A stretch of DNA of 64,000 nucleotides, from NCBI GenBank assembly GCA_028293545.1, contig JAQGOP010000012.1:1-64000 (forward strand), in the 5' to 3' direction. Source of the stretch: Verrucomicrobiota bacterium. Lineage in GTDB: Bacteria; Verrucomicrobiota; Verrucomicrobiia; Opitutales; Opitutaceae. Below the pieces are notes generated by a model. It searched no databases. It saw only the letters and a program-made list of their open reading frames with translations, and was not told the DNA's origin. This document shows positions 49,697 through 64,000 of the stretch, in pieces. The position numbers and the translations under genes are program-made. Every line of letters begins with the position of its first letter. Position 1 is the stretch's first letter.

Positions 49697-49780
49697 CTCT
49701 TCGTTATCTTCGTTGCCTTCGGTTCAAATCTTCCGGTTCGGGGCTCTCTCCCGGAGCAGGCGGGCCGCCTGCGCTACTTC
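49697..49780. repeat. second copy of the composite intergenic repeat
   Basis: CTCTTCGTTATCTTCGTTGC and the following CTTCGGTTCAAA (49697-49728) match the right arm of the element at 25640-25669. The block GGAGCAGGCGGGCCGCCTGC plus GCTACTTC at 49753-49780 is identical to 25690-25717. The order and spacing are nearly the same in both. The end of the block touches the stop codon of the permease gene. The remainder of the 277-base gap upstream of pyrH shows no gene. Confidence 0.85.
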
Positions 49781-52211
49781 AAAGGCTGCGCAGGCAATCG
49801 GCGGGCTTGATCCGCTGGAGGCGGAACAAGCTGGGAACGCACGCCAGGAACGAAACCACCAGGATGCCCGCGGCGACGCACCCGAACGTGATCGGGTCGC
49901 GCGGCTGGACGCCGTACAGCATGCTTTGCAGCGCGCGCATCGCGCCGGTGGCGGCCACCGCGCCGACCCCAACGCCGACCGCAGCCGTGAGGAGGTGTCC
50001 CCGGGCGAACCGGACCCAGAGCCGGAACGGCTCGATGCCGAGCGCGAGGCGAATGCCGAATTCCCGGTTGCGCTGCAGGATTTGCGCGACCGTGATGCTA
50101 TAGACCCCGACACCACAGAGCAGCACCGCCGCCAGGGCATAAATCGCGGTGAGGTTGGTCGTCAGCCGCACGAAGCCGAGCTGCATGTCGATCTGGTGTT
50201 TGATCGAATCGGGAAAATACGGGACCACCCGCGGATCCACCGACCAGACCGCATCCGTGATTTCCTTCGTCGACGGCAGTGCGGCCTGTCCACCGGCCAT
50301 CAGGAAAAGCGTGGCGGGCGTCCAGCCGCGGAACGGCAGCATGATCAGGTCGTTATTCGCCATCTGCGGATTCGCTGCCTGGAAATCGCGCACCACGCCT
50401 CGCACGACGGCGCGGATCGCGGGCTCTTTCGGCTCCATCCATGGCCAGCGGGTATAGAGCGCTTGGCCGATGGCGTCGCGGCCCGGCCAGAGGCGGGCGG
50501 CGAGCGAGGCATTGACGACGATCCAAGCGGGATCGTTCTGCTTGATCTCGGCGGGAAACGTGGAGCCGGCGACGAACGGCACGCCCAGCGCATCGAATAC
50601 GCCCTCGGAGGCTTCCGATGTCACGGCCAAGCCGTCTTCGCGTCCCGCCAGCAGGGTGGCGGGATCGATGGCGTAACGCGTGCGTGCGGGCACCGGGTAA
50701 CCCGGCGGGCTGTCGATGATCGCCACGCCGCGCATGCCGGACAGGCGCGAAACCGCGGCGACGACCTTCCTGAATACCACGAGGCGTTCCGGCTGCGTGG
50801 GAAAGTCGGTCTTCGGCATGTTGAGCTTTCCCAGGAAAACCTTCGAAGCGTCGTATCCCCAGCGCTCTTCGCCCAGCTGACGGTTCGACTGCATCAGGAG
50901 TCCCGCCGCGATCCCGAGGATCGTGAGCAGCGCGAGTTGCCCAATCAGCAGGGAGCGGCGCCACAATCCGCGACCCGTGCCGCGGCTTGTGCCGGCGCCG
51001 TCACGAATCACTTTTTCCGGGTTCGCCATGAACAGGTAGCTGGCCGGGACGAGGATCGCGACGCCGGCGGAGAGCACGGCGAGCCCTGCGGCCATCGCGA
51101 CGTGGTGCCAGCCAAAATCGAAATGCAGCCAGTACGGCGCGAGCATCAGCACGAAGGACTGGTGCACAAACGGCGCGGCCACGACGAGGACAGCGAGCCC
51201 GATCACGGCCGCGAACGCGGCGAGGATGAGCACCTGGAAACAGAGCCCGCGAATCGCCGCCGAACGCGGGAGGCCGAGCGCGAGCGATGCCGCCAATTCG
51301 GCGGTGCGGCCGAAGAAATCGATCATCACGAGGTTCGCGGCGTTCGCGCAGCTCACCAGGACGAACACCAGCGAAAGCGCCATGAGCACGAGCGCACTCG
51401 CGCGCATGTCCGAGTTGAGGTAATACTCGCGCGCGGGGATGATCACGGGACGGAGGTTGTATTTCGCCGCGTTCGTGGCCGGGCCGCGATGGGCCATGAT
51501 CAGGCGCAGGTCCTCGGTCGCGCGCGCGATCGAGGTGCCCGGCTTGAGCCGCACCAAGCCGTCCAGCGTGTTGTCGTCGGGCTGGCCGGAATTCCACACA
51601 TCGAACCCGAGCGGGAGCCAGACGTCCTGGCTGTTGGGAAACCGAAACGACGCCGGCATCACGCCGACGACGGTCGCGCCGTAGCCATCCACGCGCAGCG
51701 TGCGCCCGATGATGCCGGGATCGCCGGCGAAATTACGCTCCCACACCTGCTGGCTCAGGATGATCACGGGCGGGCAGCGAAACTTGTCCTCCTCCGCGGT
51801 GAACATGCGCCCGAGCAGTGGTTGCGCGCCCAGCATCCGCATCGCATCCGATGACAACAGGGCGCCGAGGTACCGGCGCGCGGAATCCTTGGTCGCGATG
51901 AAAACCGACCGATAAATCGAGATCGGCGCCATGTCGCTGAACACTGTTTGGCTCTCGCGCCAGATCCTCAGGTCCTCGTGCGTGAGCATGACGGGCTTCG
52001 CGCCGGGCGTGTTCGCGATGAGGTTCACGATGGCGAGGTTTCCCGCCGGGTCGAATTCCGGCTGGCGCACGAACATCGTGTGGAAAATCGACCAGCTGAG
52101 CAGCGACAGTGCGATCGAGATCGTGAACGTCACCAGCATCAGGCCCGACTGCGTTTTGCGCCGCCACAACCGCCGCAGCGCGAGCACGAATTCGTAGGTG
52201 AGGAGGTTCAT
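49779..52211 (-). CDS. large MacB/FtsX-type permease (ADOP family)
   Basis: 810 residues. The N-terminal helix (LMLVTFTISIALSLLSWSIF) is followed by a large periplasmic MacB-like domain, a first FtsX block (residues about 270-420, with SCANAANLVMIDFFGRTAEL), a second periplasmic domain and a second FtsX block (AVLLCGVGVYSITVAQILQR onward), ending in RLQRIKPADCLRSL. This is the duplicated-permease layout called ADOP in Acidobacteria and relatives. No ATPase gene is adjacent, hence 'orphan'. A role in export or cell-envelope stress is assumed for MacB relatives but not known here. It is 94 bases downstream of its broken paralogue. Confidence 0.9.
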   Translation of the reverse strand: MNLLTYEFVLALRRLWRRKTQSGLMLVTFTISIALSLLSWSIFHTMFVRQPEFDPAGNLAIVNLIANTPGAKPVMLTHEDLRIWRESQTVFSDMAPISIYRSVFIATKDSARRYLGALLSSDAMRMLGAQPLLGRMFTAEEDKFRCPPVIILSQQVWERNFAGDPGIIGRTLRVDGYGATVVGVMPASFRFPNSQDVWLPLGFDVWNSGQPDDNTLDGLVRLKPGTSIARATEDLRLIMAHRGPATNAAKYNLRPVIIPAREYYLNSDMRASALVLMALSLVFVLVSCANAANLVMIDFFGRTAELAASLALGLPRSAAIRGLCFQVLILAAFAAVIGLAVLVVAAPFVHQSFVLMLAPYWLHFDFGWHHVAMAAGLAVLSAGVAILVPASYLFMANPEKVIRDGAGTSRGTGRGLWRRSLLIGQLALLTILGIAAGLLMQSNRQLGEERWGYDASKVFLGKLNMPKTDFPTQPERLVVFRKVVAAVSRLSGMRGVAIIDSPPGYPVPARTRYAIDPATLLAGREDGLAVTSEASEGVFDALGVPFVAGSTFPAEIKQNDPAWIVVNASLAARLWPGRDAIGQALYTRWPWMEPKEPAIRAVVRGVVRDFQAANPQMANNDLIMLPFRGWTPATLFLMAGGQAALPSTKEITDAVWSVDPRVVPYFPDSIKHQIDMQLGFVRLTTNLTAIYALAAVLLCGVGVYSITVAQILQRNREFGIRLALGIEPFRLWVRFARGHLLTAAVGVGVGAVAATGAMRALQSMLYGVQPRDPITFGCVAAGILVVSFLACVPSLFRLQRIKPADCLRSL

Positions 52212-52305: not shown

Positions 52306-54779
52306 TCACAAGCTGCGCAGGCAGTCGGCGGGATTGATGCGCTGCAGGCGGAACCGGCTCGGGATGCAGGCGACGGCGGAGACGAGGAGGATGACCAGCG
52401 CGCCGCAGGTAAAAGTCGCGGGGTCGCGCGCATTCACCCCGAAGAGCAGCGACTGCAGGACGTGAACCACGCCCGTGGCCGCCGCGAGCCCGATGACCAC
52501 GCCGCCCGCCGCCGTGAGCAGATGCCCGCGCGCGAATCGCACCCAGAGCCGCTCGGGCTCGATGCCGAGCGCCATGCGGATGCCGAACTCGCGGTTGCGC
52601 TGGAGGATTTGGGAAACCGTGATGCTGTACACGCCCACCGCGCACAGCAGCACCGCGGCCAGCGCGTACACGCTCGTGAGCATCGTCGTCAGGCGCATGT
52701 TGCCGAGCTCGGTGTCGATCACGTGCTGCATCGAGTTGGAAAAATAGATTGCGATCCGCGGGTCGACCCGCCGCGCGGCGCCTCGCACCTGCTCGTCCGT
52801 GGGCAGCGTGGCCGCACCGCTCGCATAGAGGAACGAAGCGGTCCACATGCCGCCGCCGAGCGACATGTAGATGGCGTCGTTGACTTCCGCCTTGGGACCC
52901 GCGGCTTGGAAATCGCGGACGACCCCGCTCACGGTCAATCGATCCGGCGGGCGTTTGCTGTCCTGCCCGCGCGCGAAAAATTCCCGGCCCTGCGCAGGTT
53001 GCCCCGGCCAAAGGCGCTCGGCGAGGTGATGGGTGATGATCGCATGCAGCGGCGCGGCTTTTGCGGGCAGCGCCGTGGCACCGGGCGCGGGGGCGGGCGT
53101 CGCCGGAGCGACTTTTTCAACGCGCGGGAAGGTTTCGCCTTCGAGGAACGTCACGCCGAAGACGGTGAAGAAACTCGGGGTGACGGCGGAATAAACCGCG
53201 CTCCCTTGCGAACGCCCGTCGGCCAAACCGTCGACACTCGTCGCGTACCAGACGTTTGGCTTCGAACTGAAACCGATCGGGGTCGTCATGATCGCCGCGC
53301 CGGTGATCCCGGGCAGGCGCTCGATTTCGTCAAGCAGGCGCATATGCGTCGCGAGCCGCATTTGGGGCGTGGGAAAATCGGTGTCCTTCATCGCCGTCTT
53401 GCACGCGAAGATCTTGTGCGCGTCGTAACCCCAGTGCTCCTCGCTGACGTTGCGGCTGGAACGCAGGAGCAGGCCCGCCGAGACCGCGAGCACGGTAAGC
53501 AGCGCGATTTGTCCCGCCATCAGCGCGCGCCGCCCGAAGCCCCGACCGGTCGTGCGGTTGCCCCCGGCGCCGTCGCGGATGATGCGTTCCGGGCTTAACA
53601 GGAACAGGTATCGAGGGGAGCGACGATCGCGACGCCCGCGGCCGTCGCAGCCAGTGCGGCCGCCATCGCGAGGTGGTGCCATTCAAGCGAGAACAGGAGC
53701 CAGTACGGCGTGGTGATGCGCACCATCGCGCCGTGCACCAGGGGTGCGACCAGGAGGAGGAAAATGGTGCTGAGGACGGCGGCGGTGGCGGCCACGATCG
53801 CGACTTGGAAACAGAGGGCCCGGACGGCGGCGCCGCGCGGGATGCCGAGGGCAAGCGACGACGCGATTTCGTTGGTACGACCGAGGAAGTCGATCATGAC
53901 CAGGTTCGCGGCATTCGCGCAGCTCACGAGGACGAACACCAGCGCCAGGACAAACAGCACGAGCGCGCTCCGGTTCATGTCGGAGAGGATATAGTAATCC
54001 CGAAACGGTGTGACGCTGGGCCGCAGGTCGAACCGTGCCGCCATCGTTTCCTTGCCCCGCCGTTCCGTGATCAGGCGCAGGTCCTCGACGGCGCGCGCCG
54101 GGGTGAGGCCAGGCTTCAGCCGGACGAGGACGTCGTGGATGTTAAACTGCGGGGACTTCTCGAACGGGATAAAGCCGAGCGGCTGGAGAATGTCCTGGTC
54201 GTTGGGGAAGCGAAAATCGGCCGGCATCACGCCGATCACCGCGGCGGGAACCCCATCGAGCTTGATCATGCGCCCAAGGATGTTCGGGTCGGCCGCGAAG
54301 CGATTCCGCCACGTGCGCTCGCTCAGGAGCACGACGGGGGTGGTGCCCATCTTGTCCTCATCGGCGGTAAAAAGCCGGCCCAGCAACGGGCGGGCATTGA
54401 CCATCCGCAGCGCCGCCGCCGAGACGTTCGCGCTGAGCAGGCGCTCCTGGCCGGCCTCGGTGGTCACGAAGACCGATTCATAGAGGCGGACGATGCCGAA
54501 GTCCGAAAAGACCACCTGCTGTTTTTGCCACGCCTCGATGTCCTCGCGGGACGACGACACCAGCTGGTCCTTCGCCATGCCGCCGGTCTGCGTGACCCGA
54601 TAGAGCTTCCCGCCCGGGTCAAATGCCGGGTTCTTCAGGAACATGGTGTGGAAGAGCGACCAGCTCAAAAGCGACAGCGCGATCGACACCGTAAAGGTCG
54701 CGAGCATCAACCCCGACTGGACCCGGCGGCGCCACAGGCGGCGCAGGGTGAGCATGAGTTCGTAACCAAGGATTCGCAT
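52306..54779 (-). pseudogene. paralogous ADOP permease split by a frameshift
   Basis: Two adjacent frames together match the intact permease from end to end. The first (54779-53595) runs from MRILGYELMLTLRRLWRR through SCANAANLVMIDFLGRTNEI to AAGVAIVAPLDTCSC and a stop. The second, shifted by one base, continues YLFLLSPERIIRDGAGGNRT to the final RLQRINPADCLRSL at 52306. In the intact paralogue the join reads VAILVPASYLFMANPEKVIR. Adding one C to the CCCC run (GGGG at 53615-53618 on the plus strand) would restore one frame of about 824 codons. Either a recent inactivating mutation or an error in the assembled sequence explains it. Confidence 0.85.
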
Positions 54780-54876
54780 GCGCGGGGGTGGGTGGATAGA
54801 AGCGGTCACCCGCACCGGCGCACGCAAATAATGACGGGAGAGCGATTTAGCGGAACAAGGTAAATTAGGCTCGCGG

Positions 54877-54891
54877 TGTTACATTTTAACA
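54877..54891. promoter_or_regulatory. candidate operator upstream of the DeoR-type gene
   Basis: TGTTACATTTTAACA is a perfect 5-5-5 inverted repeat (TGTTA, TAACA) in an AT-rich patch 71 bases before the ATG of the regulator. It lies in the 182-base region between that gene and the divergent, frameshifted permease. DeoR-type repressors often control their own operon from such sites. The site is a guess based on symmetry and position. Confidence 0.4.
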
Positions 54892-54961
54892 TTCACGTGT
54901 GAGAAATAAACCCCGCCGTCCCCACCATGGTTTCACGGTTTGTCACCCTTCGCCGATCCAC

Positions 54962-55756
54962 ATGAACCCGACCGAGCGCCGGCAGTTTATCCAGGAACGG
55001 GTGGAGCAGGCCGGCACGTGCTCCTACGACGAGCTGGCCGCGGCGCTGGAGGTTTCGTCGATGACCATTCGCCGCGACATGGAGGACCTGGTCCGCCAGG
55101 GCCGCGTGATCAGGACGGTCGGCGGCGTCCAGCGGGCGCATGCGCCCTCTTATTTGTACGAGACGGCGCTGCATTCCCGCGTGGGCGTGCATCGCGAAGC
55201 CAAGCGCGCGATCGCGCGCCGCGCCCTCGAGCTCATTGCGGGCCGTGCGACCGTTTTCCTCGACGGCAGCACCACTTGCCTGGAACTCGCGCGCCTGATC
55301 GCCGAGGAGAAAAAGGGCCTCACGATTGTCACCAACTCAGTGCTGGCGTGCATGGAACTCGGCAAGAACGGCGACAACTCCATCTCCGGGATCGGGGGCC
55401 ATTACGACGCCAACAGCCTCTGCTACGTCGGCCCGCAGGCGGAGGACTGGGCGAAGACGCTGTTCGTGGACGTTGCCTTCGTGAGCACCAAGGGATTTTT
55501 GCCGGGCAAAGGGACGTTCGAATCCTCGCTCCCCAATTTCCGCATCAAGCAGATCATCGCGCGCCAGTGCGTGGAACTCGTGCTGCTCGTGGATCATTCG
55601 AAATTCGGCCAGCGCGCGTTGAGCAAGGTGCTCGACGTCGACCAGATCCACGCGATCGTGACCGACCAGGCGCCGCGCCGGGCGGACCTTGCCCTCCTCG
55701 AAAAAGCGCGGTGCGCCGTCCATGTCGCCGAGGGAAAAGCCGTCCATGCCACTTGA
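54962..55756 (+). CDS. DeoR-family transcriptional regulator
   Basis: 264 residues from the ATG at 54962; an upstream start would add 21 residues before the DNA-binding domain. The N-terminal helix-turn-helix contains CSYDELAAALEVSSMTIRRD followed by LVRQGRVIRTVGGVQ, the DeoR signature. The C-terminal part is the sugar-phosphate-sensing DeoRC domain: TVFLDGSTTCLELARLI, TIVTNSVLACMELG, VDVAFVSTKGF and LLVDHSKFGQRAL. Such proteins usually repress a sugar-use operon until a phosphorylated sugar binds. It overlaps the aldolase-like gene by 11 bases, so it is co-transcribed with the cluster that it probably controls. Confidence 0.93.
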   Translation: MNPTERRQFIQERVEQAGTCSYDELAAALEVSSMTIRRDMEDLVRQGRVIRTVGGVQRAHAPSYLYETALHSRVGVHREAKRAIARRALELIAGRATVFLDGSTTCLELARLIAEEKKGLTIVTNSVLACMELGKNGDNSISGIGGHYDANSLCYVGPQAEDWAKTLFVDVAFVSTKGFLPGKGTFESSLPNFRIKQIIARQCVELVLLVDHSKFGQRALSKVLDVDQIHAIVTDQAPRRADLALLEKARCAVHVAEGKAVHAT

Positions 55757-56633
55757 AACAATCAAGGACCTGATGGGCCGCGCCCGCGCCGGACGCTATG
55801 CGCTCGGGTATTTCGAGAGCTGGAATCTTGAATCGCTGCAGGGTGTCATCGATGCGGCGGAGCAAACGCGCTCGCCGATCATCATCGGGTTCAACGGTGA
55901 TTTTCTCAGCCGAACGGAGCGGCGCGCGACGGAGCGGCTCGAGTGGTACGCAGCGCTCGGCCGGGCTGCGGCCCAGTCGGCCGCGGTGCCATGCAGCTTG
56001 ATTTTCAACGAATGTCCGGACGACGCGTGGGTCCGGCAGGCGGCCGACGTCGGTTTCAACCTCATCATGCCCGCGGATCCCGCCGCGCCCTATGAAGACT
56101 ACGTTCAACGCGTGCGGGCGATCACCCAGCACGCGCACGCGCTGGGGGTGGCGGTGGAGGGCGAACTCGGCGAGCTGCCCTCCGGCTCGGACGGCGGCGC
56201 GGCCCACGGCGGAGCAATGACGGATCCGGAATTGGCCGCGAAATTCGTGGCCGCGACGAACATCGACCTCCTGGCGGTCAGCGTGGGGAATGTGCACATC
56301 AAGCTGAGTGGCGCGCAGGGACTCGACTTGGAACGCCTCGAGCAGATCCATCGCCGGGTCGATTGTCCCCTGGTTTTGCACGGCGGCACGGGCATCGAAA
56401 CGGCGTCGTTAAAACAGGCCATCGGCCTTGGCGTGGCCAAGGTCAACTACGGCACCTACCTGAAGCAGCGTTACCTCCGCGCCATCCGCGCGGCGCTCGG
56501 CACGGACGAAAAAAATCCCCACGAACTGCTCGGCATCGGTGGGCCTGCCGACGTGATGGTCACGGGCCGGCACGCGGTGCGCGACGCCGTCCTCGAGCGC
56601 ATCGAGATCCTCGGCTGCTGTGGCCAGGCCTGA
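55746..56633 (+). CDS. class II aldolase-like protein with altered active site
   Basis: 295 residues from the ATG at 55746. The whole chain aligns by eye with GatY/FbaA-type class II aldolases: YALGYFESWNLESLQGVIDA, TNIDLLAVSVGNVHIKLSGA, CPLVLHGGTGIETASLKQAI, LGVAKVNYGTYLK. H184 and H212, two of the three zinc ligands, are kept. The LDH(H/G) motif that gives the catalytic Asp and the first zinc His reads FNEC (residues 87-90), so Asp has become Asn and His has become Glu. It may bind metal in a changed way, use another reaction, or be a non-catalytic sensor. It lies second in the cluster, 18 bases before the E2 gene. Confidence 0.85.
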   Translation: MPLETIKDLMGRARAGRYALGYFESWNLESLQGVIDAAEQTRSPIIIGFNGDFLSRTERRATERLEWYAALGRAAAQSAAVPCSLIFNECPDDAWVRQAADVGFNLIMPADPAAPYEDYVQRVRAITQHAHALGVAVEGELGELPSGSDGGAAHGGAMTDPELAAKFVAATNIDLLAVSVGNVHIKLSGAQGLDLERLEQIHRRVDCPLVLHGGTGIETASLKQAIGLGVAKVNYGTYLKQRYLRAIRAALGTDEKNPHELLGIGGPADVMVTGRHAVRDAVLERIEILGCCGQA

Positions 56634-56651
56634 GGACAAACACCTCCCACC

Positions 56652-57674
56652 ATGGAAATCGAATTCAAGATGCCCGACCTGGCGACGACCGACTCCGAGA
56701 TCAAAGTGATCCGATGGCTCGTCGCTCCCGGCGAAGCGATCAAACGCGGGCAGGCCTTGCTTGAAGTCGAAACCGACAAGGCGATGATGGAAGTGGAATC
56801 GATCGCCACCGGCACGTTGAAGGCGGCAAGCGTGAAAGTTGGCGACGGCATCGTGGCGGGCCAGCTTATCGCGGTGATCGAAAGTGACGCGATCGCCGCC
56901 AAACCCGCGACACCCCCGGCACCGGCCGCGCCCGGTCCCGCCTCGGCGCCGACCCACCTACCCGCGGGCGGAATGTTCGCTAAAAATCGGGCGGCGAGCG
57001 CGAAGGCGGCCGTGGAATCCGGGCCCGCCAAGCTCGCGCTGACGGCGACGCAGCGCACCGTCGGGCGCCGGCTGCAGGAGAGCAAACAGAACGCCCCGCA
57101 TTTTTACCTGCAGGCGTCGGCGAATGCCGAGCCGATGCTGCGCGCCCGCACGGCCGCCGCGCCGGCGAAAATTGCGTGGGACGCTTTTTTCGCACAGGCC
57201 GTGGGCCGCGCGCTCAAGAAATTCAACCGCATGGCCTGCCGCTTTGAAGCGGACCACCTGGTCCCGGCGACGACGGCGGATGTCGGCGTCGCGGTGGACC
57301 ACGAAGGCGAGCTCTACGTCGTTGCGCTCGCCGATCCGTCCGCGAAATCCGCCGCCGAGATCTCCCAGGAACTTCGCGGGAAGGTCGAAAGGCTCCGGGC
57401 GGGCGATCCCGAGGCGCGCAAGCTGCGTTCCGCGGCGATGACCGTGACCAACCTCGGCGCCACCAGGGTCGAGGCGTTCACCGCCATCATAAGCCCGCCG
57501 GAAGCGGCGATCCTGGCGATCGGGCGCGTGGCGCCGACGGCCATCGTCGAAGCCGGCGGGATCGTGGCGCAAAATCGCGTGACACTTACGCTCTCGGCCG
57601 ACCACCGCGTCGTGAACGGCAAGTATGCCGCCGACTTCCTCACCGAGATCATCCGCGAACTCGAATCACTCTGA
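56652..57674 (+). CDS. short dihydrolipoamide acyltransferase (E2) of a 2-oxoacid or acetoin dehydrogenase
   Basis: 340 residues. Residues 1-80 are a lipoyl domain with the lipoylated Lys K43 in EVETDKAMMEVES. A Pro/Ala-rich linker (about 81-105) leads to the catalytic domain (about 125-340), which has LALTATQRTVGRRLQESKQN and ends in TLTLSADHRVVNGKYAADFL. Two things are unusual. No peripheral subunit-binding domain can be seen between linker and core, and the catalytic DHRxxDG reads DHRVVNG (H318 kept, Asp replaced by N322). Typical E2 proteins are longer than 400 residues. It should carry acyl groups from the E1 encoded further downstream. Substrate not known. Confidence 0.88.
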   Translation: MEIEFKMPDLATTDSEIKVIRWLVAPGEAIKRGQALLEVETDKAMMEVESIATGTLKAASVKVGDGIVAGQLIAVIESDAIAAKPATPPAPAAPGPASAPTHLPAGGMFAKNRAASAKAAVESGPAKLALTATQRTVGRRLQESKQNAPHFYLQASANAEPMLRARTAAAPAKIAWDAFFAQAVGRALKKFNRMACRFEADHLVPATTADVGVAVDHEGELYVVALADPSAKSAAEISQELRGKVERLRAGDPEARKLRSAAMTVTNLGATRVEAFTAIISPPEAAILAIGRVAPTAIVEAGGIVAQNRVTLTLSADHRVVNGKYAADFLTEIIRELESL

Positions 57675-57700
57675 ACGCTTCCGCCCTCCCCATATTCCCC

Positions 57701-58501
57701 ATGAAAAACCGACTCTCCCGCGACCAGGTCGAGCACTACTCGCGCGATGGCTACCTGATGATCCACGAGCAGATTTTCTCGCCCGAGAAATTCGAACGCG
57801 TGCGCAACTATTGCGCCGGCAAGTTTGCCGAGGCGAACAAGGGTGGAGACCAGCCGGCAATCATCGATTGCCCGCACTGGAGCGACCCGCGCATTTTTGA
57901 ATTCATTTTCGCGGACGAGATGCTCGACTTGGTGGAGCCGCTGATCGGGCCGGACATCGGCGTGTTCGCGTGTCACCTCCTGCAAAAGCCCGCCGCGGTG
58001 GGAAAGCGGGTGCCGTGGCATGAAGACTCCGCTTATTGGAAAGGCGCGCTGACGCCGATGGAGGTGGCGTCGATCACGATCGCGCTCGAGCCCTCGCTTC
58101 CGGCCAACGGCTGCCTGCGCGTGATCCCCGGCACGCATGTGCATGGGTATTCCGACTACGCGGAGGTCGCGCGACCGGACGCGGAAGTGTTCCCGATCGA
58201 GATCAAGCGCCACCAATTCGACGAGGCCAAGGCGGTCGACATCGCGCTCCAACCCAACGAGGCGTCGATCCACCACGGCAAAATCATCCACGGTTCGAAC
58301 CCGAATACCGGTGCCACGCGGCGGGCGGTGCTGACGGTGCGGTATTTTCCCGCCACGGTGAAATTCACGCCGGAGAATCACCCCCATTTTGCCGCGGCCA
58401 AATTCAACATCTACCTGGCGCGCGGCCAGGACCGCGCCGGCAACCGGTACGCCGATTCCACCAAATCCTACGTGGGCGGGGAACCGGTTCATACCGCGTG
58501 A
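57701..58501 (+). CDS. phytanoyl-CoA dioxygenase (PhyH) family protein, cluster copy 1
   Basis: 266 residues. The iron ligands are H107 and D109 in RVPWHEDSAYWKG and probably H197 in KIIHGSNPNTGATRRAVL, with R207 or R208 for 2-oxoglutarate. The start has the usual EHYSRDGYLMI. The HEDSAYW motif is common in ectoine-hydroxylase-like and halogenase-like PhyH proteins; the acid in HxD is present, so it is a hydroxylase type and not a halogenase. It lies 26 bases after the E2 gene and 34 before the first glycosidase-like gene. The substrate is unknown, possibly a sugar-linked or amino-acid-like compound. Confidence 0.87.
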   Translation: MKNRLSRDQVEHYSRDGYLMIHEQIFSPEKFERVRNYCAGKFAEANKGGDQPAIIDCPHWSDPRIFEFIFADEMLDLVEPLIGPDIGVFACHLLQKPAAVGKRVPWHEDSAYWKGALTPMEVASITIALEPSLPANGCLRVIPGTHVHGYSDYAEVARPDAEVFPIEIKRHQFDEAKAVDIALQPNEASIHHGKIIHGSNPNTGATRRAVLTVRYFPATVKFTPENHPHFAAAKFNIYLARGQDRAGNRYADSTKSYVGGEPVHTA

Positions 58502-58535
58502 TTCGCCGGGCGCCGGGCGCCGGGCCGACTGACCG

Positions 58536-60872
58536 ATGAAAATTTCGAACTCCCTTTCCCGGCTGCGTTACACGTTTCATAGCGCCCGGCTGAAGCGCGG
58601 GCATTCGTTCGGCAACGCGCAGGTCTACCTTACGCTCGACCGGAATTCGGATGTGATCCACGAGCCCCAGACCGCGCGGCTCGGGCTGCGCGACGCGTGG
58701 GACCAGGAGTATTACCTGTACGGCTGGCGCACGGACGCGCTGACCCCGGGCGGCGCGCCCTTCGCCTCGGTCGAGACTTCGTTTTCTCCCGCGAGCCAGA
58801 GCACGATGTTGCGCCACGGGGACCGCAGCATTGAGAAAAAATTCATCCTCCCGTTCGAAAACAACCTGCTGCGATCCGCCCATTATTTGTTCACGGCGAA
58901 CGACGCCAATCCCGAGGCTCCCGCGGGGCTGAGCTCGAGCCTCGTGCTGCCGGCGGGGGCCGTGGCGACGGCGGCCGTGCAGGACGGGCATAAGTATCTC
59001 GCCATTCGCTACGCGAACAACGTGGCGGGATTGGTCTGGGGAACCGGCGACCTGGCCAGCGTTGAAACGCGGGTGGTCGAGGCCGACCGGGTCGAGTGCA
59101 CGCTCCGATTCGCGTGGCCCGCCGGCGCCGAGTGTGGGTTGTCGTTCGCTTACGCGCATACGAGCCCGGCTCCCCTTTCCTCGGTGTATGAGTCGTTCGC
59201 GGCCGATGCGCCCGGCGCCCAGAGCCATTTGCGCCGGATCAAAGTCATCGAGGAAGAGACGGAGATCGCGATCGCGCGCCACCTCGACACCTGCCGATTG
59301 TGGACTTCCGACCCGGTCGTCACCGACGGCGTGAATTGGGCCAAGGTGAACCAGCTCAAGGACTGGCAGGAATATCGCCGCGGGCCCGGCTTCAGCAATT
59401 GCCCGCCGAGCGACGTCTTCGTCGGCCGCGATACGTTCTGGTTCCTGGTGAGCACGAATTATTATGCGCAGGACTGGTCGCGTCGCCTGCTCGAGTTCTG
59501 GTTCCGCGACGGGCTGGAGCCGAACGGGAAATTCATCGAGTACATGCGCGCTTCGAGCGTGCCGCTGTTCCGCGACGACTACGGGCTCAACATCAACGAC
59601 AACACGCCGCTGCTGCTGATCGCGGCGCATGACTACTTTGCGATTTCCGGCGACCGCGGGTTCCTCGACTCGGTGTATTCGGCACTGCTGCGTTCGGCGA
59701 ATTACATCCTGGACCAGCGGAACGATGCGGGCCTCATCTGGTGCCGCTCGCGCGACGCGTTCGTGCGCGGGTTGTGCGGCTGGCGGAATTGCACCGGAAA
59801 ATACCAGCTCTCCGGCGCGGTGACGGAGATCAACGCCGAATGCTACCGCGCGCTGCTTCTCACCGCGGAGCTCTGCGCCATCGTCGGTGATCGGGTGAAC
59901 GCGAAACGCCTTCAAACCGCCGCGGTAAACCTGCACGCCGCGATCAATCGCGAACTGCGCGCCGCCACGGATGCGAACCCGCATTACCTGCTGATGATCG
60001 ATCCCGATCAGCGCCGCATTGACGACGTGACGGGCGACCTGCTGTTTCCCGCGCTCTTCGGCGTGGCGCCGCGAGGATTGGCGCGCGCGATGTTGGAAAA
60101 ACTTTTCCGCGCGCCCTTCTGGCGGTCGGATGAAAATGGCGCGGGCGGGATGCACACGATCAGCCCCGACCAAAAGGGATTTCAGCCGCGGGCGGACCCG
60201 GCCACCTACGGATTGCAGGGCGGAGTGTGGCCGAACCTCGCCCTCTGGGCGGCACGCGCCGCCTCGGACGCGGGGCTGCCGGACCTGATCGTGCAGGCCC
60301 TGAAGGGCACGCGGCTGCTGGGCGATCGCCCGGACTTCGACCACTTCAATGTCACCCCCGGCGAGTTTCCGGAATATTATAATGGTGACGACTTGATCCA
60401 GCGCGGGCACCCGCGCAGCACGTTCATCCATGGCAGCTACATGTGGGCCGCGTGGGAAGGACTGATGGGCCTGACGCCGCGCGCGAGCGGGCTCGAGGTC
60501 AACCCGGTGCTGCCCACCGGGTGGAAGTGGACCGCGCTGTCGCGCATTTCCTATCGCGGCGCGCCGTTGACGCTGCTGGCGGTGGCGAAGGGACGCACGC
60601 TGTACACGACGGCGCGGGTAAGGACGAAATGGAAACAGGTCGCGGTCTCCGCCGAGCGCCAGGATGAATTCCGCCTCGAGAGCGACGCCCCGGTTTTCTG
60701 GCTCGTGGTCGGGCGCGACGTCCTGGTTGCTTCCGATGTGAACGCGGAGGTGAAACTGATCGAGCGCGCCTCCGGCAAAGTCGCGGCGCTGGCCACCGTC
60801 GCCGCAGGCGAAATTGTGCGGGCGAAACTTTGGGCAAAACCCGCCCGGCGCTCACGGTCGGCCGCAAAATAA
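58536..60872 (+). CDS. (alpha/alpha)6-barrel glycosidase, related to amylo-alpha-1,6-glucosidase
   Basis: 778 residues with no signal peptide. The N-terminal 270 residues are a beta-sandwich domain (ARLGLRDAWDQEYYLYGWRT). The helical toroid follows: DVFVGRDTFWFLVSTNYYAQ, RDDYGLNINDNTPLLLIAAH, and VTEINAECYRALLLTAELC, which resemble the GRDT, DAPL and VEINALWYNAL segments of glycogen-debranching enzymes. The C-terminal strand domain begins near TPRASGLEVNPVLPTGWK, a pattern shared with GH65/GH94-like proteins. The catalytic acid and base are not certain. It may cleave or phosphorolyse a glycoside in the cytoplasm. The next gene starts seven bases later. Confidence 0.75.
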   Translation: MKISNSLSRLRYTFHSARLKRGHSFGNAQVYLTLDRNSDVIHEPQTARLGLRDAWDQEYYLYGWRTDALTPGGAPFASVETSFSPASQSTMLRHGDRSIEKKFILPFENNLLRSAHYLFTANDANPEAPAGLSSSLVLPAGAVATAAVQDGHKYLAIRYANNVAGLVWGTGDLASVETRVVEADRVECTLRFAWPAGAECGLSFAYAHTSPAPLSSVYESFAADAPGAQSHLRRIKVIEEETEIAIARHLDTCRLWTSDPVVTDGVNWAKVNQLKDWQEYRRGPGFSNCPPSDVFVGRDTFWFLVSTNYYAQDWSRRLLEFWFRDGLEPNGKFIEYMRASSVPLFRDDYGLNINDNTPLLLIAAHDYFAISGDRGFLDSVYSALLRSANYILDQRNDAGLIWCRSRDAFVRGLCGWRNCTGKYQLSGAVTEINAECYRALLLTAELCAIVGDRVNAKRLQTAAVNLHAAINRELRAATDANPHYLLMIDPDQRRIDDVTGDLLFPALFGVAPRGLARAMLEKLFRAPFWRSDENGAGGMHTISPDQKGFQPRADPATYGLQGGVWPNLALWAARAASDAGLPDLIVQALKGTRLLGDRPDFDHFNVTPGEFPEYYNGDDLIQRGHPRSTFIHGSYMWAAWEGLMGLTPRASGLEVNPVLPTGWKWTALSRISYRGAPLTLLAVAKGRTLYTTARVRTKWKQVAVSAERQDEFRLESDAPVFWLVVGRDVLVASDVNAEVKLIERASGKVAALATVAAGEIVRAKLWAKPARRSRSAAK

Positions 60873-60879
60873 ATTTCCC

Positions 60880-62091
60880 ATGACGACTGTTGCTCCTGCC
60901 CAGCTTGAACCGGAATTGGCCGAGGCTTACCGGCAGTGCGCCGACAAGAGCGTGCTCGCGGCGCTCAACCCGAATATTTTCTTCGGCTACTTCTCGGTCT
61001 GCGCCGACCCGAAGCAGGGGCACGGGCACAACACCACCTTTCCCGGCCTGGATTGGGGCCAGTCGGCGGAAGCCCTGCTATGGCTGGGGCGCAGGGCCGA
61101 GGTGCTCGCGAGTTGGGAGTATGTGAAGACTTTTCTGCGCGAGGACGGACTGCTGCCCTTCGCAATCGTGCCGGACCAGGCGGGCACGACGGTGCAGATG
61201 AACCTGCCGAAAAAAACCGAGAGCTTTCCCTTTGTCGTCGCCCCGAACGGCGGCGCCTACAGCCACTGGTTCCCGGGCAACCCGCTCATGATGCTGCCCA
61301 ATGTGACCTTCGTGCAGGTCGCGGAGGCGATCTTCAGCCGCACGCGCGACCACGCGTGGCTGGCGGCGCAGCAGCCGATCTTGCGGTGCGTCGCGGATTG
61401 GATCGTGCAGCAGGTCACGCCGGAAGGGCTGGTGCGCGGCGGTGGATTTTATGTCGAGCGTCCCCCGCGCCTCGAATTCGACGGGGTCACGCAGTGCTAC
61501 ACGGCCGACGCACTGCGGCTGGCCGCGAAACTCACGCGCAACGACTCATATGCGGCGGTGGCTGCGCGGATCACGACGTGTTTCCGGGACAAATTCTGGG
61601 CCGGCGACCACTGCGTCGAGTACATCAACCGCGAGCACGGCGTGATCAAGCACCACGGTTTCACGGATGTGGATTGGGCCGCCATCGCGACGGGCACGGC
61701 ATCGCCGGAACAGGTCAAAATCATCTGGCCGCAGATCCGGCGGAATCCCGATTTCGTCTATAATGGAATTCCGACCGGCATCTCCACGCGCCCGGAAACG
61801 TACGAAGACTGGGAAATGATGTACCTGGACCGCCACGACCTGGCGGCGATGGGACGCGTTTGGTACGTCGAGGCCTGGGCGCGGCACGTGATGGACGATC
61901 GCGAAGGACTCTTGGAATCGCTGCGCCAGGTCGCGCGCGTGGGGCGCGCGAACGACTGGTACTGGCTGGAGCGCTACTATTCCGAGCGCAGCGGCGACCT
62001 CGGCAGCTATCGCATCAACACCTACTGTGAGTATCCCGCTAATTTCATCCGCATCGTCCACCGCTTCGTCCTGCAAGGATCCAAAGGTTGA
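60880..62091 (+). CDS. second six-hairpin glycosidase-like protein
   Basis: 403 residues from the ATG at 60880. No signal peptide. It is all-helical with six-hairpin features: GLDWGQSAEALLWLGRRAEV, AAQQPILRCVADWIVQQ, RLEFDGVTQCYTADALRLAA, DRHDLAAMGRVWYVEAWARH. These resemble the toroid of the preceding protein and of GH15/GH65/GH127-type enzymes without its beta domains. It could be a second hydrolase, an epimerase-like toroid protein, or a partner subunit. I cannot point to catalytic residues. It is 7 bases after the first glycosidase-like gene and 33 before the E1 alpha gene. Confidence 0.65.
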   Translation: MTTVAPAQLEPELAEAYRQCADKSVLAALNPNIFFGYFSVCADPKQGHGHNTTFPGLDWGQSAEALLWLGRRAEVLASWEYVKTFLREDGLLPFAIVPDQAGTTVQMNLPKKTESFPFVVAPNGGAYSHWFPGNPLMMLPNVTFVQVAEAIFSRTRDHAWLAAQQPILRCVADWIVQQVTPEGLVRGGGFYVERPPRLEFDGVTQCYTADALRLAAKLTRNDSYAAVAARITTCFRDKFWAGDHCVEYINREHGVIKHHGFTDVDWAAIATGTASPEQVKIIWPQIRRNPDFVYNGIPTGISTRPETYEDWEMMYLDRHDLAAMGRVWYVEAWARHVMDDREGLLESLRQVARVGRANDWYWLERYYSERSGDLGSYRINTYCEYPANFIRIVHRFVLQGSKG

Positions 62092-62124
62092 GCCGGCCCC
62101 GAATTGCTTTGATTAAATTTCCCC

Positions 62125-63093
62125 ATGAAACCTGACCCGTTGAATCGCGATTTCCTCCTCAAGCTTTACGAGAAAATGGTGCTCATCCGTGAATTTGAGG
62201 AGCGCGTTAAATTCCTTTTCCTCGAGGGCACGATGCCCGGCACGATTCACCAGTGCCAGGGCCAGGAAGCCACGGCCGTCGGCGTCTGCGCGGCGCTCGC
62301 GGCGGACGATTTTATCACGTCCACGTTCCGCGGCCATGGCCACGCACTCGCCAAGGGCCTGGGCGTGCAGGAAATGCTCGATGAACTTTTCGGCGCGCGC
62401 ACCGGATGCTGCAAGGGGAAGGGCGGGTCGATGCACATGGGGAACATGGACAAAGGCATGGTGCCCGGCATCGCGATCGTGGCCGGCGGGATCCCGCTCG
62501 CGGCGGGCATGGCGCTCGCTTTCAAGATGCAGCAGAAGCCGCAGGTCGTGGCGTGCTTCTTCGGCGACGGCGCCGTGGCGGAGGGCGCTTTTCACGAAGC
62601 GGTGAACATGGCGGCGATCTGGGCCCTGCCCGTCATCCTGGTCTGCGAGAACAACCATTACGGCGCCTCGACCCGCGTCGACAAGGTCATGAAGAACCCG
62701 CGGATCTCCGATCGGGCTGCGTCCTACGGTTTCCGGGGAGAAACCGTCGACGGCAACGACGTCCTCGCGGTGCTCGCCGCCGCGCAACGCGCCGCCGAGG
62801 AATGCCGCAGCGGCCAAGGCCCCGTGCTGCTCGAGCTGATGACTTATCGCCGCACCGGTCACTCGCGGCGCGATGCCTGCCATTACCAGCCGAAGGAGGA
62901 GCGGGAGCTGTGGTTCTCGCGGGACCCGATCGAGCGCTTTGGCGCGCAACTGATGGAGCGCAATGACGTCACCGCCGCCGATCTCGCCGGGGTCAAGGCG
63001 CGAGTCGAGCAGCAGATCAACGAAGGCGTCGAGCGCGCCAAGGTTGCGCCGCAGCCCACCGTCGCCGAACTCACTGAAGACGTCTTCGCCTGA
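62125..63093 (+). CDS. thiamine-diphosphate dehydrogenase E1 alpha subunit (pyruvate or acetoin type)
   Basis: 322 residues. E1 alpha motifs: GTIHQCQGQEATAVGVCAAL, FITSTFRGHGHALAKGLG, CKGKGGSMHMGNMDKGM, and the diphosphate/Mg motif FFGDGAVAEGAFHEAVNM with CENNHYGAST (residues about 145-182). The C-terminal YRRTGHSRRDACHYQPKEE is the regulatory loop region. The length and the GHGHALAKG sequence are close to acetoin dehydrogenase AcoA and to short bacterial PDH E1 alpha, and I cannot choose between them. It needs an E1 beta, which appears to begin at 63947 after an unexpected dioxygenase gene. Confidence 0.92.
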   Translation: MKPDPLNRDFLLKLYEKMVLIREFEERVKFLFLEGTMPGTIHQCQGQEATAVGVCAALAADDFITSTFRGHGHALAKGLGVQEMLDELFGARTGCCKGKGGSMHMGNMDKGMVPGIAIVAGGIPLAAGMALAFKMQQKPQVVACFFGDGAVAEGAFHEAVNMAAIWALPVILVCENNHYGASTRVDKVMKNPRISDRAASYGFRGETVDGNDVLAVLAAAQRAAEECRSGQGPVLLELMTYRRTGHSRRDACHYQPKEERELWFSRDPIERFGAQLMERNDVTAADLAGVKARVEQQINEGVERAKVAPQPTVAELTEDVFA

Positions 63094-63112
63094 GCCGCAG
63101 ATTTTTCCTCCC

Positions 63113-63943
63113 ATGAATACCCCCACGACAGTTGCCTTGTCGGAAGCGCAGAAGCGCAGCGCCGCCGCCCAGTTCGAGCGCGACGGATTTTTCATCGCCC
63201 CGCCCTTGATTCCCGCGGAACTGGTCGCGCGCGTTCGCCAGCGGATCGATGCGGTGTATGCCGGCGACTATGAAACCGGGATTCCGCCCTGCGGTTCGCC
63301 GAAGGGCTCGAAGACGCCGCCGACGTCGCTCGTGAAGATCGACAACGCCCATCGCTCCGATCGCGTGATCCATGAAGTCGTGAGCCATCCCGCGGTCGGC
63401 GAATGGGCCGCCGCGCTGACCGGCGCGAAGCGCGTGCAGGTGTTTGCGACGCAGATGCTGATCAAACCCTCCGGCGCTCCCGGCGGGGCGAATGTCGGCT
63501 GGCACCAGGACCAGGAATATTGGGACGGCGCGCTGCGGGGCGAGGTGTTCACGGCGTGGATCGCGATCAGCGATGTGACGGCCGAATCCGGCCCCATGCG
63601 TTTCGTGCACGGGTCCAACCACTGGGACCTGCTCAAGGCCGGGGATTTCTTCGGCGGCGACCTGGCCGCGATCAAGCAGCGTCTCCTCGAGAAGAGCGGC
63701 GCCAAGGCCTGGGACGAAACCGCGGCGGTGCTTTCGCCGGGGGCAGTGAGCTTTCATCATCGGCTCACGGTGCACGGCAGCGGACCGAACACCTCCGGCC
63801 TGCCGCGCATCAGCTTCGCGGTGCACCTTCGGACCGATCAGTCGCGCTTGGCCGACGGCGTGAAATGGCAGGATGTGGGTTATCTCAACGACCCCGATGA
63901 CATGCAGGGCAGCCCTATTTCCTATTCGACGACCCAATCTTAA
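63113..63943 (+). CDS. phytanoyl-CoA dioxygenase (PhyH) family protein, cluster copy 2
   Basis: 276 residues from the ATG at 63113. The iron ligands are H131 and D133 in NVGWHQDQEYWDG and H221 in LTVHGSGPNTSGLPRISF, with R232 for 2-oxoglutarate. The start is a typical QFERDGFFIAPPLIPAEL. It shares the general plan but little sequence with cluster copy 1, so the two are not recent duplicates and may act on different carbon positions. It lies 19 bases after the E1 alpha gene and 3 before the presumed E1 beta, which splits the usual E1 alpha-beta pair. Confidence 0.88.
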   Translation: MNTPTTVALSEAQKRSAAAQFERDGFFIAPPLIPAELVARVRQRIDAVYAGDYETGIPPCGSPKGSKTPPTSLVKIDNAHRSDRVIHEVVSHPAVGEWAAALTGAKRVQVFATQMLIKPSGAPGGANVGWHQDQEYWDGALRGEVFTAWIAISDVTAESGPMRFVHGSNHWDLLKAGDFFGGDLAAIKQRLLEKSGAKAWDETAAVLSPGAVSFHHRLTVHGSGPNTSGLPRISFAVHLRTDQSRLADGVKWQDVGYLNDPDDMQGSPISYSTTQS

Positions 63944-63946
63944 ACC

Positions 63947-64000
63947 ATGAAACGACAAGGCATCGCAGAGGCGCTTCGCGACGGCATCGCGGAGGAAATG
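63947..64000 (+). CDS. start of probable E1 beta subunit (cut by window edge)
   Basis: Only 18 codons are present: MKRQGIAEALRDGIAEEM. The pattern with EALRDGIAEEM matches the first helix of E1 beta subunits of pyruvate and acetoin dehydrogenases, which often begin with a ...AL(R/N)xAIxEEM segment. It follows the dioxygenase gene by three bases, and E1 alpha without E1 beta would not work, so the assignment is reasonable but rests on very little sequence. Confidence 0.6.
   Translation, partial: MKRQGIAEALRDGIAEEM

What the first reader, a model, noticed from the sequence alone, without database searches (positions are those of the whole stretch)
54962..64000. Candidate new system: DeoR-controlled cluster joining a TPP dehydrogenase, two Fe/2OG oxygenases, two glycosidase-like proteins and an altered aldolase
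Nine plus-strand genes run with gaps of 3-34 bases or overlaps: DeoR regulator, class II aldolase-like protein, short E2, PhyH oxygenase, two (alpha/alpha)-barrel glycosidase-like proteins, E1 alpha, second PhyH, and the first codons of a probable E1 beta. The spacing is seen directly and the family assignments follow from motifs. I know of no described operon with this content. Inference: a glycoside is opened by the toroid enzymes, its product is hydroxylated by the PhyH enzymes, and the E1/E2 proteins oxidatively cleave a 2-oxo acid or an acyloin. The DeoR sensor points to a sugar-phosphate inducer. A transporter, kinase, E3 and aldehyde steps may lie beyond the window end.
Basis: partly seen in the sequence, partly recalled or inferred. 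Interest (0 to 1): 0.75.

Follow-up and report, generated by a model that had tools for sequence, protein, structure and literature searches.

The report
Sugar operon with acyltransferase-free E1/lipoyl core
A bacterium of the Verrucomicrobiota carries a run of 13 genes, likely one operon, that joins families of sugar-cutting enzymes to a dehydrogenase which in many relatives has a lipoyl carrier but no acyl-transfer domain, and to an aldolase relative with a changed catalytic motif; it probably serves a sugar-breakdown route that we could not find described.

Summary
Thirteen plus-strand genes (contig 54962-71163) follow one DeoR operator (54877-54905); the last five are E1 beta, a third PhyH, a D-lyxose-isomerase-like cupin, a RhaD-type aldolase/SDR fusion and a GH38 homologue. 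No transporter, kinase or E3 is among them; a single transcript was not tested. Relatives show the core: a class II aldolase paralogue with HxDH replaced by NE, E1 alpha/beta, a lipoyl protein and usually the isomerase. It recurs in Verrucomicrobiota, Planctomycetota and on an Arthrobacter plasmid, and its E1 alpha form one clade (98/95). In 14 of 22 loci the E2 acyltransferase domain is absent. PhyH, glycosidase, kinase and RhaD genes vary. Inferred: a mannose-type, perhaps O-methylated, glycoside is hydrolysed, isomerised to a ketose and cleaved oxidatively by the acetoin-dehydrogenase-like E1 onto lipoyl. Substrate, acyl acceptor and the NE protein's reaction are unknown. A new variant of a known kind, with a conserved core I could not find described.

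The parts
54877..54905 (+). DeoR operator: TGTTANNNNTTAACA and, six bases on, a half site TGTGAGAA
   Evidence: 1 match in the window, 0 in 100 shuffles; 9 of 12 same-genus genomes have exactly one match at up to 1 mismatch, 0 for the reversed control pattern; 9 of 9 lie just upstream of DeoR
54962..55756 (+). gene 1, DeoR-family regulator
   Evidence: PF00455 142.9 bits, PF08220 53.2 bits
55746..56633 (+). gene 2, NE-type class II aldolase paralogue (HLDH replaced by IFNE)
   Evidence: PF01116 205.1 bits; alignment; 120 of 120 listed homologues, the window's own included, have FNE and 0 have HLDH
56652..57674 (+). gene 3, E2: lipoyl domain plus acyltransferase domain, no detected E3-binding domain
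   Evidence: PF00364 and PF00198 only, at E up to 0.001
57701..58501 (+). gene 4, PhyH1, Fe/2OG oxygenase
   Evidence: PF05721 76.8 bits
58536..60872 (+). gene 5, GHa, MGH1-like toroid glycosidase-like protein
   Evidence: PF22422 31.7 bits, cut-off 27
60880..62091 (+). gene 6, GHb, (alpha/alpha)6 glycosidase-like protein
   Evidence: 604 homologues at E up to 0.001 among the 7998 candidates scored; AF2 model and fold matches
62125..63093 (+). gene 7, E1 alpha
   Evidence: PF00676 282.5 bits; one clade with the E1 alpha of 18 other loci
63113..63943 (+). gene 8, PhyH2
   Evidence: PF05721 87.2 bits
63947..64000 (+). gene 9, start of E1 beta; it ends at contig 64963
   Evidence: PF02779 and PF02780. 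Beyond the window on the same contig: PhyH3 64997-65761, LyxI-like 65810-66352, RhaD/SDR 66374-68347, GH38 68410-71163

Best explanation
This is most likely one DeoR-controlled catabolic operon, predicted to take a mannose-type (perhaps O-methylated) glycoside apart inside the cell and to pass the resulting ketose to an acetoin-dehydrogenase-like E1 that would cleave it oxidatively and load the acyl piece onto the lipoyl carrier. Shown: gene content and order; one operator in each of nine genus genomes; a core of NE-type aldolase paralogue, E1 alpha/beta, lipoyl protein and usually the isomerase; absence of the E2 acyltransferase domain in 14 of 22 loci. Inferred: GH38 and the two toroid proteins hydrolyse the glycoside; PhyH enzymes, where present, remove or alter a substituent; the lyxose/mannose-isomerase-like cupin makes a ketose, which is an alpha-hydroxyketone; E1 cleaves C2-C3 of it or of its phosphate; the NE protein, which keeps two metal-ligand histidines but not the Asp-His pair, handles a neighbouring C-C bond or acyl step; RhaD/SDR, where present, is a side or follow-up branch. 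Who accepts the acyl group in loci without an E2 is unknown.
For: Order and spacing. One operator per genome in 9 of 12 genomes, 9 of 9 before DeoR. NE motif in 18 of 18 loci where that part of the gene is covered, 17 FNE and 1 LNE. E1 alpha of 19 loci form one clade (98/95), apart from the genome's PDH-like E1 (C63) and from DRL-linked and acoX-linked E1. Isomerase-like gene in 15 of 22 loci; window's copy PF07385 28.1 bits, cut-off 20.8; the G261 homologue 272 bits to NF051472 D-lyxose/D-mannose isomerase. GH38, nearest solved relatives 5kbp, 3lvt, 2wyh. Best Foldseek hit of GHb is 7qsj, methylmannose polysaccharide hydrolase (E 6.9e-8). Acyloin reading of E1: rhizobial E1-E2 sets at 46-49% identity sit beside an NAD(P)H oxidoreductase that is DRL_cat by Pfam in the one tested (L136), a setting where DXP, an acyloin, would be the substrate (inference). 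Methyl reading: clusters without PhyH hold URO-D genes (L074 between E1 alpha and E1 beta, L151 just before E1 alpha, L080) or MtmB-like plus corrinoid genes (L150).
Against: No substrate was tested. PhyH genes are missing from two clusters that span E1 alpha to the isomerase (L058, L062), so they are not essential. PhyH and URO-D also occur side by side at GHb-paralogue loci, so they are not plain alternatives, and URO-D genes number 19 to 39 in six of nine genomes, so some may sit there by chance. GHb fold ranks are close: GH100 invertases lead in Z (30.7 against 26.6 for 7qsj), and identity to 7qsj is 16%. No isomerase was seen in the stretches of G354 and L132. The window's isomerase matches no NCBIfam model. 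No kinase is in the window's run, although DeoR regulators usually sense sugar phosphates (recalled). In the window E2 is full length, so acyl-CoA formation is possible here. E1 alpha scores close to the PDH model.
Confidence: 0.33

Rival explanations
1. An ordinary sugar operon with a dedicated pyruvate dehydrogenase: aldolase and SDR steps yield DHAP and a C3 piece that becomes pyruvate, and E1/E2 makes acetyl-CoA with E3 (and, where missing, the E2 core) borrowed from the housekeeping complex.
For: E1 alpha scores 358.9 bits to TIGR03182 PDH E1 alpha, cut-off 393.85; E1 beta passes NF006667, 342.5 against 321; the RhaD/SDR fusion passes NF006196, 1071.3 against 831; other E2-type genes exist in all nine genomes searched.
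Against: E1 alpha falls in a clade apart from the genome's PDH-like E1; the acyltransferase domain is absent in 14 of 22 loci; RhaD/SDR is not between isomerase and GH38 in L037, L046 and L047.
Confidence: 0.3
2. The E1 cleaves a 1-deoxyketose phosphate (methyl ketone, like DXP or the substrate of LsrF) made from a 6-deoxy sugar, giving acetyl-lipoyl and a sugar aldehyde; the sugar fed in is a deoxy sugar rather than a methylated mannose.
For: Rhizobial E1-E2 sets beside a DRL_cat oxidoreductase (L136); LsrF-type thiolases over their cut-off in L146 and L080 (501 and 514 bits, cut-off 297); RhaD-type aldolase; toroid relatives include rhamnosidases.
Against: No LsrF or DRL gene among the window's 13 genes; the isomerase and GH38 point to mannose/lyxose types; DRL-linked E1 are outside the NE clade.
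Confidence: 0.2
3. The NE protein is not an enzyme but a binding or scaffold subunit, and the E1/lipoyl pair is a redox or regulatory device; the cluster is a loose glycan-use island, not one pathway.
For: The Asp-His pair is replaced in 120 of 120 listed homologues; accessory gene content varies widely.
Against: Two metal-ligand His and many other residues are kept even in distant homologues (82 columns invariant in at least 119 of 120); core linkage across phyla; one operator.
Confidence: 0.12

Closest known systems
Acetoin dehydrogenase / pyruvate dehydrogenase complexes
   Same: E1 alpha/beta families, lipoyl carrier, and in the window a full E2 with the DHRVVNG motif
   Different: separate E1 alpha clade, no E3 in the run and no detected E3-binding domain, acyltransferase domain absent in 14 of 22 loci, linked to an NE-type aldolase paralogue and a sugar isomerase
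Class II fructose/tagatose-bisphosphate aldolases (KbaY, GatY, FBA)
   Same: fold family PF01116, two of the metal-ligand histidines
   Different: HLDH replaced by FNE; every NCBIfam equivalog or subfamily score below its cut-off
RhaD-type bifunctional aldolase/short-chain dehydrogenase
   Same: gene 12 passes the NF006196 equivalog cut-off
   Different: linked with a lyxose-isomerase-like gene and E1/lipoyl genes, and not present in all clusters
DRL-linked E1-E2 sets of rhizobial plasmids
   Same: E1 alpha at 46-49% identity, sugar or polyol uptake setting
   Different: full E2, DRL oxidoreductase, no NE aldolase seen in the stretches fetched
lsr (autoinducer-2) catabolism
   Same: LsrF-type thiolase in L146 and L080; FGGY kinase and sugar ABC genes in the Arthrobacter cluster
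   Different: no Lsr gene among the window's 13; E1/lipoyl and NE aldolase are not part of lsr (recalled)

Membership tests
2-oxo acid / acetoin dehydrogenase complex | E1 alpha and E1 beta | tested here: met
   PF00676, PF02779 and PF02780
2-oxo acid / acetoin dehydrogenase complex | E2 acyltransferase domain | tested here: met
   in the window PF00198 164.7 bits; but present in only 8 of 22 related loci
2-oxo acid / acetoin dehydrogenase complex | E3-binding domain in E2 | tested here: not met
   no such Pfam hit at E up to 0.001
2-oxo acid / acetoin dehydrogenase complex | E3 gene in the operon | tested here: not met
   none among the 13 genes
2-oxo acid / acetoin dehydrogenase complex | activity on a 2-oxo acid or acetoin | not testable with these tools
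   needs enzyme assay
Class II ketose-bisphosphate aldolase | PF01116 fold family | tested here: met
   205.1 bits, cut-off 25.5
Class II ketose-bisphosphate aldolase | HxDH motif (catalytic Asp and a metal His; roles recalled) | tested here: not met
   IFNE in its place; FNE in 120 of 120 listed homologues
Class II ketose-bisphosphate aldolase | curated NCBIfam scores | tested here: not met
   best 174.6 against 343.05; 20 families matched, none over its cut-off
D-lyxose/D-mannose isomerase (cupin) | PF07385 score | tested here: met
   28.1 against 20.8
D-lyxose/D-mannose isomerase (cupin) | NF051472 equivalog score | tested here: not met
   window's protein: no family; G261 homologue 272 against 350
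Bifunctional aldolase/SDR (RhaD type) | NF006196 equivalog score | tested here: met
   1071.3 against 831
GH38 | GH38 N, middle and C domains | tested here: met
   PF01074 95.4, PF09261 34.6, PF07748 60.9 bits, all over cut-off
Methylmannose polysaccharide hydrolase (MmpH type) | homology beyond the shared toroid fold | tested here: inconclusive
   first by Foldseek E-value at 16% identity, rank 20 by Z; no sequence-level hit with profile A1 (one search lists 3cih only)
PhyH Fe/2OG oxygenases | PF05721 score and HxD...H iron motif | tested here: met
   three proteins at 76.8, 87.2 and 118.4 bits, cut-off 22; HED, HQD, HQD and a later H read in the translations
PhyH as sugar O-demethylases | release of formaldehyde from a methyl ether | not testable with these tools
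   inference from context only

The most novel reading that the evidence does not exclude
An acyltransferase-free sugar ketolase: E1 alpha/beta and a stand-alone lipoyl carrier oxidatively cut ketoses (or ketose phosphates) at C2-C3, and an aldolase-fold NE enzyme takes the acyl piece or the remaining sugar onward. It would be a further way to split ketoses beside aldolases and transketolase/phosphoketolase, used here on O-methylated mannosides.
Probability: 0.14. Interest if true: 0.87.

Novelty: new variant of a known kind. Interest (0 to 1): 0.6.

Why it matters
A gene set kept in two phyla and seen on an actinobacterial plasmid marks a sugar-breakdown route that our paper searches did not show. 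The repeated state of E1 plus lipoyl carrier without an acyltransferase asks where the acyl group goes, which a handful of purified proteins could answer. If the O-methyl link is right, it also gives a use for some of the many PhyH and URO-D genes of these genomes.

Tried and rejected
Transporter, kinase and E3 just beyond the window: none among the 13 genes; further on (L006:16829-18766) lie a TetR regulator and an HlyD-type export protein, too far off to belong. Other genes under the same operator: none in the 12 genus genomes at up to one mismatch. E2 core moved elsewhere in lipoyl-only genomes: the PF00198 hits of G005, G009, G010, G261, G336 and G354 lie on other contigs than the cluster; I read them as housekeeping E2 from score and frame length, did not look at their neighbours, and cannot exclude an orphan E2. 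PhyH against URO-D as a clean swap: weakened by loci with both. PhyH enrichment: 3 in 16.2 kb against 0.16 expected from 40 in the genome, Poisson about 6e-4; rough, as the 40 include the three and such genes cluster. Inositol pathway (IolC/IolJ/IolR-like): the PfkB of G008 scores 113 against 300 for IolC. Plasmid search with the NE aldolase: rows listed are 33.4% identical or less; their motifs were not checked. A plasmid search with the Arthrobacter aldolase gave, besides itself, rows up to 40%, motifs not checked. Papers: seven searches aimed at this gene set, two at methylerythritol use, one at MmpH (95). I saw search listings only (15 of 37, 15 of 57 and 10 of 63 papers), and of PMC9883506 the start of the abstract and two passages. 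None of the titles or abstract starts describes this gene set; the library lacks most subscription journals. A GH family number for MmpH is recalled and does not occur in that paper.
Full report
What is there. The window is contig C32:1-64000 of a 3.96-Mb draft genome, 83.84% complete. Nine plus-strand genes run from DeoR (54962) to the first codons of E1 beta (63947), with gaps of 3-34 bases and one 11-base overlap. On the contig the run goes on with E1 beta (63947-64963), a third PhyH (64997-65761), a D-lyxose-isomerase-like cupin (65810-66352), a RhaD-type aldolase/SDR fusion (66374-68347) and GH38 (68410-71163), with gaps of 33, 48, 21 and 62 bases: 13 genes in 16,202 bases. About 70 bases on begins a short reading frame with no Pfam hit, then a sensor kinase hybrid; I do not count them in, but read-through was not excluded.

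Control. Upstream of DeoR lies TGTTACATTTTAACA followed after six bases by TGTGAGAA (54877-54905). The pattern occurs once in the window and in none of 100 shuffles. Of 12 same-genus genomes, 9 have exactly one match at up to one mismatch and none matches the reversed control; 9 of 9 sit directly before DeoR. G002, G010 and G011 have no match; their upstream stretches hold diverged versions by eye. The regulator therefore most likely serves this operon alone.

Conservation. GHb occurs in 13 of 57 genomes: the window's own, 11 of 11 others of the genus and 1 of 25 others of the family; 0 of 20 others of the order. I compared 22 loci, one per genome or record: the window, G001-G011, G031, L063, L065, L074, L080, the Arthrobacter plasmid L132, and G261, G336, G354, G395 (recount). 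L052-L062 and L064 are the same contigs as G001-G011 and G031 and are not counted twice. E1 alpha is present in 19 of 22; G002, L063 and L065 are cut by contig ends. The NE aldolase or a piece of it is present in 19 of 22; in G001, G004 and G006 the contig starts after it. A lipoyl protein or domain is present in 22 of 22. The isomerase is present in 15 of 22, not seen in the stretches of G354 and L132, and not reached in G002, G031, L063, L065 and L074. PfkB is seen in 10 of 22, the RhaD/SDR fusion in 7 of 22, several others being cut. Also variable are a 690-aa and a 1120-aa glycosidase-like protein, a second GH38-like protein, GHa with PhyH1, PhyH2 and PhyH3. These loci were found through GHb or the NE aldolase, so their linkage to one or the other is partly by choice of query; the linkage to E1, lipoyl and isomerase is not. 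The NE aldolase (E up to 1e-60) is rare: 4 of 288 genomes of the phylum sample, the window's own included, and 4 of 337 in the class of G261 (G261 is in both).

The altered aldolase. Against solved class II aldolases HLDH aligns with IFNE. Of the 120 homologues listed, the window's own protein among them, 120 have FNE and none HLDH. In the 22 loci the motif is FNE in 17 and LNE in 1 (L080), which are the 18 where that part is covered. Asn88, Glu89, His184 and His212 are kept in at least 119 of 120 and in six distant homologues. So the catalytic Asp and one metal His are replaced and two metal His stay; roles of these residues in classical enzymes are recalled. I do not know what the NE protein catalyses.

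E1 and the lipoyl carrier. E1 alpha of the 19 loci form one clade (98/95) that excludes the genome's PDH-like E1 alpha (C63) and the rhizobial and haloarchaeal ones. The tree warned of long branches, Arthrobacter and Thermus among them, so the place of the Arthrobacter row is less sure. E2 is complete in 8 of 22 loci (window, G001, G003, G008, G011, G031, L074, G395). In 13 it is a lone lipoyl domain of 82-153 aa, and in G336 the lipoyl domain is fused to E1 alpha. On the E1 alpha tree the two states need at least 4 changes among 12 Opitutae loci and 6 among 19; the count cannot tell gain from loss. The seven full-length E2 of relatives keep DHRVV(N/S)G, the window's too. So the acyltransferase is dispensable or borrowed; which one is not known. 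A Thermus plasmid has E1 alpha, E1 beta and a lone lipoyl protein outside this clade, so that state is not unique to NE clusters.

Glycosidases. GHb has no Pfam family; its AF2 model (23-row alignment A1) is mostly helical and matches (alpha/alpha)6 glycosidases. Foldseek ranks the mycobacterial methylmannose polysaccharide hydrolase 7qsj first; by Z the GH100 invertases lead with 30.7 and 7qsj has 26.6. Fold shown, substrate not. GH38 is closest to 5kbp, 3lvt and 2wyh. I saw no obvious signal peptide at the N-termini of GHa, GHb and GH38 and take them as cytoplasmic; no predictor was run.

PhyH and methyl groups. The genome has 40 PhyH genes. Of the 14 loci L052-L065, 10 have PhyH inside the cluster; L058 and L062 lack it although they span E1 alpha to the isomerase, and L052 and L065 are cut (positions). 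Three NE loci without PhyH (L074, L080, L151) have URO-D-family genes with HxC and a later Cys, with weak NCBIfam matches to MtaA/CmuA-type methyltransferases, all far below cut-off; L150 has an MtmB-like gene and a corrinoid protein. L146 (6.9 kb) and L152 have neither. Because URO-D genes are numerous in six of nine genomes and occur beside PhyH at GHb-paralogue loci, I treat demethylation as a lead, not a result.

Function. The best reading is a catabolic operon in which a glycoside is hydrolysed, the aldose isomerised, and the ketose, an alpha-hydroxyketone, cleaved by an acetoin-dehydrogenase-like E1 with transfer to lipoyl. Rivals are a dedicated PDH and a methyl-ketone (DXP-like) route, the latter suggested by a rhizobial relative beside a DRL_cat oxidoreductase and by LsrF-type thiolases in L146 and L080. 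Sequence data cannot choose among them, and my odds say so.

Novelty. Each part belongs to a known family or fold; the combination, the NE subfamily and the acyltransferase-free E1/lipoyl state were not found in seven full-text searches of an open-access library, seen as listings. I call it a new variant of a known kind.

Noticed in passing
L136, L137, L140, L138 (plasmid records): Rhizobial plasmids carry a Gut-type PTS (L136, L137) or sugar ABC genes (L140), an NAD(P)H oxidoreductase (DRL_cat by Pfam in L136, the one tested) and E1 alpha/beta/E2; Priestia L138 has the PTS and E1/E2/E3. Predicted: methylerythritol to MEP to DXP, then cleavage to acetyl-CoA and glyceraldehyde phosphate.
   Followed up: partly
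L146:1111-1989, L080:3046-3933: LsrF-type thiolases (over the NF006081 cut-off) beside NE aldolase, E1 and lipoyl genes, with no other lsr gene recognised there.
   Followed up: partly
L120, L122, L125, L129, L130; G000:C50 (L049): A GHb paralogue is preceded by a PhyH gene, and in the five named relatives by one or more URO-D genes on the same strand.
   Followed up: partly
L152:8556-12618: Four adjacent genes: isomerase, NE aldolase, lipoyl-E1 alpha fusion, E1 beta; a minimal form of the core.
   Followed up: partly
window 52306-54827 (minus strand): Two overlapping frames (458 and 410 aa) resemble the two halves of the intact 810-aa permease-like frame at 49779-52211, as if one gene were split by a frameshift or an assembly error.
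   Followed up: no
L006:12357-16841 (minus), L006:8624-11638 (plus): Downstream: a 1494-aa protein with seven Ig-like (Ig_3) stretches, and a fusion of solute-binding, PAS, histidine kinase and receiver domains.
   Followed up: no
nine genomes: PhyH and URO-D gene numbers differ widely: 40 and 1 in the window's genome, 0 and 19 in G354, 65 and 3 in G336, 30 and 39 in G031.
   Followed up: no
L135:8992-11179 (Thermus plasmid): E1 alpha, E1 beta and a lone lipoyl protein beside TRAP transporter genes, outside the NE clade.
   Followed up: no
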